Source: Magnolia sinica (lineage: Eukaryota; Streptophyta; Magnoliopsida; Magnoliales; Magnoliaceae). From it: DNA of 64,000 nt. Below are positions 21,980 to 50,813 of this stretch, in pieces. Position 1 is the first letter of the stretch. Each line of letters starts with the position of its first letter. A program made the position numbers and the translations under genes. Where the stretch lies: assembly GCF_029962835.1 (NCBI RefSeq), contig NC_080584.1, positions 80,876,862 through 80,940,861 of the forward strand, written 5' to 3'. The notes below the pieces were generated by a model that saw nothing but the letters and a program-made list of their open reading frames with translations, was not told the origin of the DNA and ran no database searches.

Positions 21980-22231
21980 ATGCTACCCTTTAGGAACTGC
22001 CCATCTTCTCTAATACCCATACTCGTTCTTCTCTCTATCGTACTAGTCTTTTCTCCTATCAACCAAAGCCATCTCCATCTCTTCAAAACCATCCCTCAAA
22101 ATCACACAAGGATTACAAAAGGAAGTCTCCAAATCCCACAAGCCCAAGCAATCTCTGAGAGCTTCTTTCATATATCTTCCTCCAACTCTACTATTATTTC
22201 TGCAACCAACAACAGTGCTACAGCTACAACA
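21980..22231 (+). other. GT47 exon 1 (signal anchor)
   Basis: 84 codons, phase 0 end at ...ACA|GTAAGT. The ATG at 21980 is the first in frame. An earlier ATG at 21951 is in another frame, reads ATGGTAGCA, and stays open only briefly. Confidence 0.8.

Positions 22232-50813: not shown

What the first reader, a model, noticed from the sequence alone, without database searches (positions are those of the whole stretch)
21980..50813. GT47 gene spread over 28.8 kb by a 25.4-kb transposon-loaded intron
Exons 1-2 and exons 3-4 lie 25 kb apart but join in phase at the position expected for the family. The intron contains a complete LTR retrotransposon, a duplication arm, at least seven MITEs and a dead copia element. 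The coding exons keep the family motifs with no stops, so the gene seems able to tolerate this load. Element 2's gag-pol runs in the same sense as the gene, so its LTR polyadenylation signals could cause premature ends.
Basis: partly seen in the sequence, partly recalled or inferred. Interest (0 to 1): 0.75.

Follow-up and report, generated by a model that had tools for sequence, protein, structure and literature searches.

The report
Magnolia gene with transposon-swollen 25-kb intron
A Magnolia sugar-transferase gene of a cell-wall family is stretched over 29 kb because mobile DNA piled into one intron, which is ordinary for this group of plants; a decayed second copy of the gene's back half, left by a tandem duplication, lies downstream.

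Summary
Four exons (21980-22231, 22414-22574, 47989-48343, 50151-50813, +) join in frame to a 476-aa GT47 protein without stops; introns are GT-AG and intron 2 is 25,414 bp. The genome is Magnolia sinica: contig C1 has exactly the published maximum scaffold length.

The same intron, same place and phase, is found in 9 of 13 related loci scanned, at about 0.36-6.7 kb. So this is most likely one gene with an enlarged intron. About 58% of it is recognisable mobile DNA: a 9,569-bp Ty3-type element, a SINE-like insertion and at least seven MITE-like stretches.

The 'duplication arm' is one copy of a tandem duplication that starts inside intron 2. It left a decayed copy of exons 3-4 about 44 kb downstream of exon 3, and that copy keeps the empty site of the LTR element.

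Coding constraint since the duplication is supported. Tolerance of the LTR element is not shown: it is too young (LTR divergence 0.009). AATAAA is absent from both LTRs and at chance level in the intron. Long introns are published as prevalent in magnoliids. New member of a known kind; low interest.

The parts
21980..22231 (+). GT47 exon 1 (84 codons; hydrophobic N-terminal stretch by eye)
   Evidence: donor GTAAGT
22414..22574 (+). GT47 exon 2, ends ...YAFH plus 2 bases of a split codon
   Evidence: acceptor AG, donor GT; phase 2 as in the paralogues
22575..47988 (+). Intron 2, 25,414 bp
   Evidence: repeats found inside the window alone (the duplication included) cover 18,583 of 25,414 bp
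22769..23206 (.). Palindromic MITE-like element, arms about 130 bp
   Evidence: (I3)
   Evidence: (I4)
24580..25006 (.). MITE-like repeat, second family (also 25746-26170 inverted, and 27047-27472)
26309..26858 (-). MITE of the microsatellite-flanked family, inverted relative to 28523-29060
   Evidence: (I1, I2)
28523..29060 (+). Microsatellite-flanked MITE, imperfect terminal inverted repeat of about 39 bp
29197..57513 (+). Copy A of a tandem segmental duplication: distal intron 2, exons 3-4 and 3' flank. Right edge approximate.
29380..29522 (-). SINE-like insertion, in copy A and absent from copy B, flanked by 13-bp repeats with one mismatch
   Evidence: (84.5% match at 5772-5913; gap against copy B)
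31672..31676 (+). Target-site duplication GTTAT, left (right copy 41246-41250)
31677..41245 (+). Ty3/gypsy-type LTR retrotransposon, gag-pol in the gene's sense, coding frames broken
   Evidence: LTRs 31677-32245 and 40673-41245 differ at 5 of 569 aligned sites, indels not counted
37886..40065 (-). Two antisense reading frames between pol and the 3' LTR; 39232-40065 matches PF04195
45080..45238 (-). Probable remnant of a copia-type element (gag_pre-integrs, below cut-off), inside the stretch shared with copy B
47989..48343 (+). GT47 exon 3, SYIEMERRF...SCHDW
50151..50813 (+). GT47 exon 4 with stop codon
57590..64000 (+). Start of copy B of the tandem duplication. It runs on past the window; its decayed exons 3'-4' lie at about C12:80968688-80971578 (about 91.8-94.7 kb in window numbering).

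Best explanation
This is one four-exon GT47 glycosyltransferase gene of Magnolia sinica. Its second intron has grown to 25.4 kb largely through mobile DNA, beside a tandem duplication of the gene's 3' half. The order of events: (1) the intron is old, at the same place and phase in the paralogues (shown). (2) Mobile DNA entered it, including the probable copia remnant that both duplicates share (shown for that stretch; the timing of the MITEs is not known). (3) A segment from inside intron 2 to beyond the 3' end was duplicated head to tail, leaving a second set of exons 3'-4' without exons 1-2, which decayed (shown). (4) After the duplication a SINE-like element and a Ty3-type LTR element entered copy A (shown by the empty sites in copy B; their order relative to each other is not known). 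The gene most likely works by being transcribed through about 29 kb and splicing out intron 2 normally, with cryptic poly(A) sites in the silenced elements passed over, as the IBM2/EDM2/AIPP1 machinery does for heterochromatic TEs in Arabidopsis (inferred; no RNA or chromatin data here).
For: In-frame GT-AG joins; full GT47 domain across the exon 3/4 join. Same intron place in 9 of 13 related loci scanned, 7 of them with GT donor and AG acceptor at 1,130-6,728 bp. One high-identity exon 2 genome-wide. A 1.5-kb test stretch of the duplication has two full-length matches, A and B; the other 38 scored are short (40 of 457 candidates scored). L029, L023 and L030 continue the A/B alignment through exons 3-4 to 56.3 kb of the window. 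The LTR empty site is whole in copy B. A/B noncoding divergence 0.112 over 10,255 sites against 0.009 between the LTRs. Copy B has three frameshifting insertions in exons 3-4, copy A none. Of changes resolved by two outgroup paralogues, B has 10 nonsynonymous and 5 synonymous, A has 1 and 2 (10 v 1, p 0.012).
Against: No transcript evidence was available. The Pfam domain lies wholly in exons 3-4, so it does not test the 25-kb join. 23 of 41 A/B coding differences could not be polarised, and the outgroups are saturated at synonymous sites. The coding test has no power after the LTR insertion. Four of the 13 loci scanned showed no exon 2: copy B (L023), L019, L021 and L024, so partial gene pieces do occur in this genome. 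L010 lacks the AG acceptor and L015 has GC in place of the donor GT.
Confidence: 0.84

Rival explanations
1. The gene worked until recently but the LTR element silenced or truncated it, so it is now a pseudogene with an intact frame: transcripts end inside intron 2.
For: The element is young (5 differences in 569 LTR sites). An intact frame after gene death at that time has probability about 0.60. The element lies in the gene's sense.
Against: No AATAAA in either LTR and chance-level numbers in the intron.
Confidence: 0.15
2. Exons 1-2 and exons 3-4 are two separate transcription units, or remnants of two genes.
For: They lie 25 kb apart. Exons 3-4 alone carry the whole Pfam domain. Orphan pieces exist: copy B, and exon-3-like pieces without exon 2 at L019 and L021.
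Against: In-phase join at the intron position shared by 9 of 13 related loci scanned. Exon 2 here resembles the exon 2 of the two closest paralogues (45-53%). No other exon 3 near 22.6 kb and no other high-identity exon 2.
Confidence: 0.05
3. Assembly artefact: unrelated pieces joined, or the duplication made by the assembler.
For: The region is repeat-rich and the LTRs are 99% alike.
Against: No N in the window. Clean 5-bp TSD and a matching empty site in B. A and B differ by 0.112, far above the paper's stated error rate. Published ONT assembly with contig N50 about 45 Mb (PMC10999834).
Confidence: 0.02

Closest known systems
Long introns of magnoliids and Chloranthales (PMC8626473, passages read)
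   Same: Gene longer than 20 kb, intron growth with LTR retrotransposons as a main part.
   Different: Nothing in kind; here the intron also carries one edge of a tandem half-gene duplication.
Genes with heterochromatic TE-bearing introns in rice and Arabidopsis, tied to IBM2/EDM2/AIPP1 (PMC7145194, PMC10241880, passages read)
   Same: Long TE-bearing intron inside a coding gene; risk of cryptic polyadenylation in the TE.
   Different: Heterochromatin, TE-linked ends and dependence on IBM2 are not measured here.
Partial tandem duplication leaving an orphan 3' half-gene (general knowledge, no paper searched)
   Same: Head-to-tail copy without exons 1-2, decaying by frameshifts.
   Different: One breakpoint lies inside a repeat-rich intron beside a microsatellite-flanked MITE terminus; the mechanism is not settled.

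Membership tests
GT47 (Exostosin, PF03016) | Full-length match to the Pfam model above the curated cut-off | tested here: met
   205.9 bits v 33.4, model 2-292/293; exons 3 and 4 each over cut-off in the genome search; sequence matches to solved Exostosin-2, Exostosin-1 and Exostosin-like 3 chains
GT47 (Exostosin, PF03016) | Glycosyltransferase activity, and which sugar and acceptor | not testable with these tools
   Subclade not placed by a tree; likeness to Arabidopsis At5g03795-type genes is recalled only
Ty3/gypsy LTR retrotransposon | Two LTRs with TG...CA ends and a 5-bp TSD | tested here: met
Ty3/gypsy LTR retrotransposon | Order gag, RT, RNase H, integrase | tested here: met
   Pfam Retrotrans_gag, RVT_1, RVT_3, rve in that order, over cut-off, in separate frames; the protease match was below cut-off
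Ty3/gypsy LTR retrotransposon | Intact coding capacity (not needed for membership) | tested here: not met
   gag-pol split over several frames
Heterochromatic-intron gene (IBM2/EDM2 class) | TE inside an intron of a coding gene | tested here: met
Heterochromatic-intron gene (IBM2/EDM2 class) | H3K9me2 and non-CG methylation over the intron; altered transcripts when IBM2 or EDM2 is lost | not testable with these tools
   No chromatin or RNA data held; not filed as a member
Copia-type remnant in intron 2 | Copia domains over their cut-off | tested here: inconclusive
   One domain, 25.0 bits v cut-off 28.4, in 1 of 8 pieces tried

The most novel reading that the evidence does not exclude
Exons 1-2 serve two alternative 3' ends: exon 3 at 25 kb and the orphan exon 3' at about 69 kb, whose splice acceptor and donor, and the acceptor of exon 4', are still intact. 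Intron 2 would then act as a tunable switch between full-length enzyme, early ends in the transposon load, and non-coding read-through transcripts of copy B.
Probability: 0.06. Interest if true: 0.5.

Novelty: new member of a known kind. Interest (0 to 1): 0.2.

Why it matters
It is a clean, datable example of intron growth. A tandem duplicate of known divergence preserves empty sites, so insertions into copy A can be placed after the duplication. Copy B, free of coding duty, serves as a rough local clock, and it shows that 'no stops' proves little about tolerance of a young insertion, a caution that applies to many such readings.

Tried and rejected
Separate genes: disfavoured by the paralogues' intron position and phase. 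Second exon 3 near 22.6 kb: none found. 'Duplication arm' as a transposon family: rejected, two full-length matches among 40 scored. LTR poly(A) signal AATAAA: absent from both LTRs. Duplication mechanism: both left edges lie beside the same MITE terminus and a (CA)n run, but the 33 bp (29164-29196) and 47 bp (57543-57589) between that and the first shared base look unrelated, so recombination at the MITE is possible, not shown. The right edge of copy B was not reached. Extra DNA in copy B as a measure of neutral gain: not used, because part of it (62441-63141 v 72304-73049, 74% alike) looks older than the duplication. In one search the alignment at the SINE-like site came out misplaced; its absence from copy B rests.

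Full report
WHAT WAS CHECKED. Exons 21980-22231, 22414-22574, 47989-48343 and 50151-50813 give 1,431 coding bases including the stop, 476 amino acids; introns of 182, 25,414 and 1,807 bp start GT and end AG (sequence). Pfam Exostosin_GT47 matches residues 144-426 at 205.9 bits (cut-off 33.4), model 2-292 of 293. Exon 3 starts at about residue 138, so the domain crosses the exon 3/4 join but not the exon 2/3 join. A search of solved structures returned seven distinct sequences, named Exostosin-2, Exostosin-1 and Exostosin-like 3, best E 4e-16.

WHERE IT IS. The window is C12:80876862-80940861 of a held genome of 1,838,573,281 bases in 127 contigs. Contig C1 is 141,926,363 bases, exactly the maximum scaffold length printed for Magnolia sinica (PMC10999834; sections 17 and 18 and passages seen). 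The paper gives 1,839,595,854 bp in 130 scaffolds, so the held copy is slightly smaller. It also gives 19 chromosomes, LTR elements as 48.9% of the genome and a mean gene length of 11,297 bp. The window has no N.

ONE GENE. PF03016 gave 80 matches in the genome. I fetched 20 stretches around candidate relatives; some listed relatives, such as C18:55.07 Mb and C1:9.04 Mb, were not fetched. Thirteen loci with an exon-3-like match were scanned for an upstream exon 2; 11 of them were scanned again with a looser pattern, and six of the 13 were searched by tblastn with relatives' exon-2 ends. Nine of 13 have one, ending like exon 2 here, before the S of SYxxME. Seven have a GT donor, an AG acceptor and phase 2: L009 2,456 bp, L011 3,074, L012 1,130, L013 3,082, L014 2,777, L016 6,728, L018 2,726. 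Two have a damaged border: L010 about 2.3 kb (no AG acceptor) and L015 about 0.36 kb (GC where the donor would be). Lengths other than those of L016 and L018 were worked out by hand from printed positions. The four without exon 2 are copy B (L023), L019, L021 and L024. Intron 2 here is 3.8 times the longest of the others.

THE LOAD. Repeats recognisable from the window alone cover 18,583 of 25,414 bp, but that includes the duplicated segment. Counting only the MITE-like runs up to 29.1 kb (about 4.9 kb, microsatellites included), the LTR element and the SINE-like insertion gives about 14.6 kb, 58%, added by hand; the rest is unassigned apart from the probable copia remnant. At least seven MITE-like stretches lie between 22.7 and 29.1 kb. 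Two were searched genome-wide with lists capped at 40 scored places: 23770-24210, the 39 others at 85-88%, and 28480-29060, the 39 others at 88-92%. Element 2 is 31677-41245 with TG...CA ends and TSD GTTAT; its LTRs differ at 5 of 569 aligned sites, K2P 0.0088, indels not counted. Gag, RT, RNase H and integrase domains lie in separate + frames, and PF04195 lies antisense before the 3' LTR. The 5' LTR returned 40 scored places at 86-100%, itself included, many in pairs about 9 kb apart. The copia remnant rests on one sub-threshold domain.

WHAT THE DUPLICATION ARM IS. Window 29.2-31.7 and 41.2-42.9 kb match 57.6-62.4 kb. Downstream stretches of C12 continue the match: 43.8-46.5 kb (88.0%), 46.5-46.9 (88.3%), 46.9-47.3 (88.7%), 47.4-51.3 (90.6%), 51.3-52.5 (74.6%), 52.6-53.5 (90.2%) and 54.4-56.3 kb (84.8%). 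Between 42.9 and 43.8 kb only a 76% match at 43.2-43.4 kb was found, and copy B holds far more DNA there. It is a head-to-tail duplication of the gene's 3' half with one edge inside intron 2. A 1.5-kb test stretch has two full-length matches in the genome, A and B; the other 38 scored are short. Copy B's exons 3' and 4' are 95.5% and 96.2% identical to A's, hold three frameshifting insertions (4, 1 and 4 bp) and keep their splice sites. Copy B lacks the LTR element and the SINE-like insertion.

ORDER AND SELECTION. A/B noncoding K2P is 0.112 (10,255 sites in nine segments, 0.042-0.138 by segment). Intron 3 (91.6% identical) and the 3' flank (96.2%) were not in that sum. Coding Ks is 0.100 and Ka 0.026 (338 codons). 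LTR divergence is 0.009, so the element is roughly 13 times younger than the duplication. Of 41 A/B coding differences, 18 could be assigned with two outgroup paralogues: 15 on B (10 nonsynonymous), 3 on A (1 nonsynonymous); 23 were unresolved. 10 v 1 has binomial p 0.012. Using B's frameshift rate and the stop rate of random changes, a gene dead since the duplication would keep an intact frame with probability about 0.0015, one dead only since the LTR insertion with about 0.60. The frameshift rate rests on three events and assumes B was free from the start. So the gene was kept for much of the time since the duplication; whether it survived the LTR element cannot be read from its frame.

HOW IT MOST LIKELY WORKS. 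Transcription through the intron and normal splicing is the best-supported reading but is inferred. Magnolia biondii has mean and median introns of about 2,774 and 525 bp (PMC7917104, passage). AATAAA is absent from both LTRs and occurs 17 times in intron 2 against 17.3 expected.

VERDICT. I did not see this locus discussed, but my two GT47 searches were general and only their listings were seen.

Noticed in passing
window 9109-18646: A second LTR element of the same family in inverted orientation, 89% alike to element 2 over about 9.5 kb; its own LTR pair is 98.7% alike. Inverted pairs like this could support inversions.
   Followed up: partly
window 26309-26858, 28523-29060; L016:5304-5860: MITE family with an imperfect 39-bp terminal inverted repeat next to (TA)n, (CT)n or (CA)n runs: 3 of 5 copies of at least 300 bp in held sequence have a long run on at least one side. 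Resembles microsatellite-associated SaTar elements (PMC5907723, abstract and outline seen). The L016 copy lies in the C9 paralogue's own intron 2.
   Followed up: partly
L018:2803-5483 and 7407-10000 (C1 about 105.59 Mb): In a paralogue the 5' part with exon 2 is duplicated in tandem (1,053 bp at 100%, 1,634 bp at 96.7%, cut by the end of the stretch held), the mirror case of the 3'-half duplication here.
   Followed up: partly
L019, L021 (C9 about 22.13 Mb, C13 about 10.14 Mb): Exon-3-like GT47 pieces with no exon 2 found in about 8 kb upstream and no exon-4 match in the next 10 kb (L020, L022).
   Followed up: partly
window 62441-63141 and C12 window-numbered 72304-73049: Direct repeats 74% alike about 10 kb apart, starting where copy B departs from copy A. 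They look older than the A/B duplication, which a simple later insertion into B does not explain.
   Followed up: no
window 56302-57411: A roughly 1.1-kb repeat with a copy on C3 at 84% and many copies matching its ends; no second copy near C12:80.97 Mb was among the 40 of 3,518 candidates scored.
   Followed up: partly
window 49086-49403 (-): 105-aa open frame in intron 3 ending [15 protein letters not shown], which looks PPR-like by eye; no Pfam match at E 0.01.
   Followed up: partly
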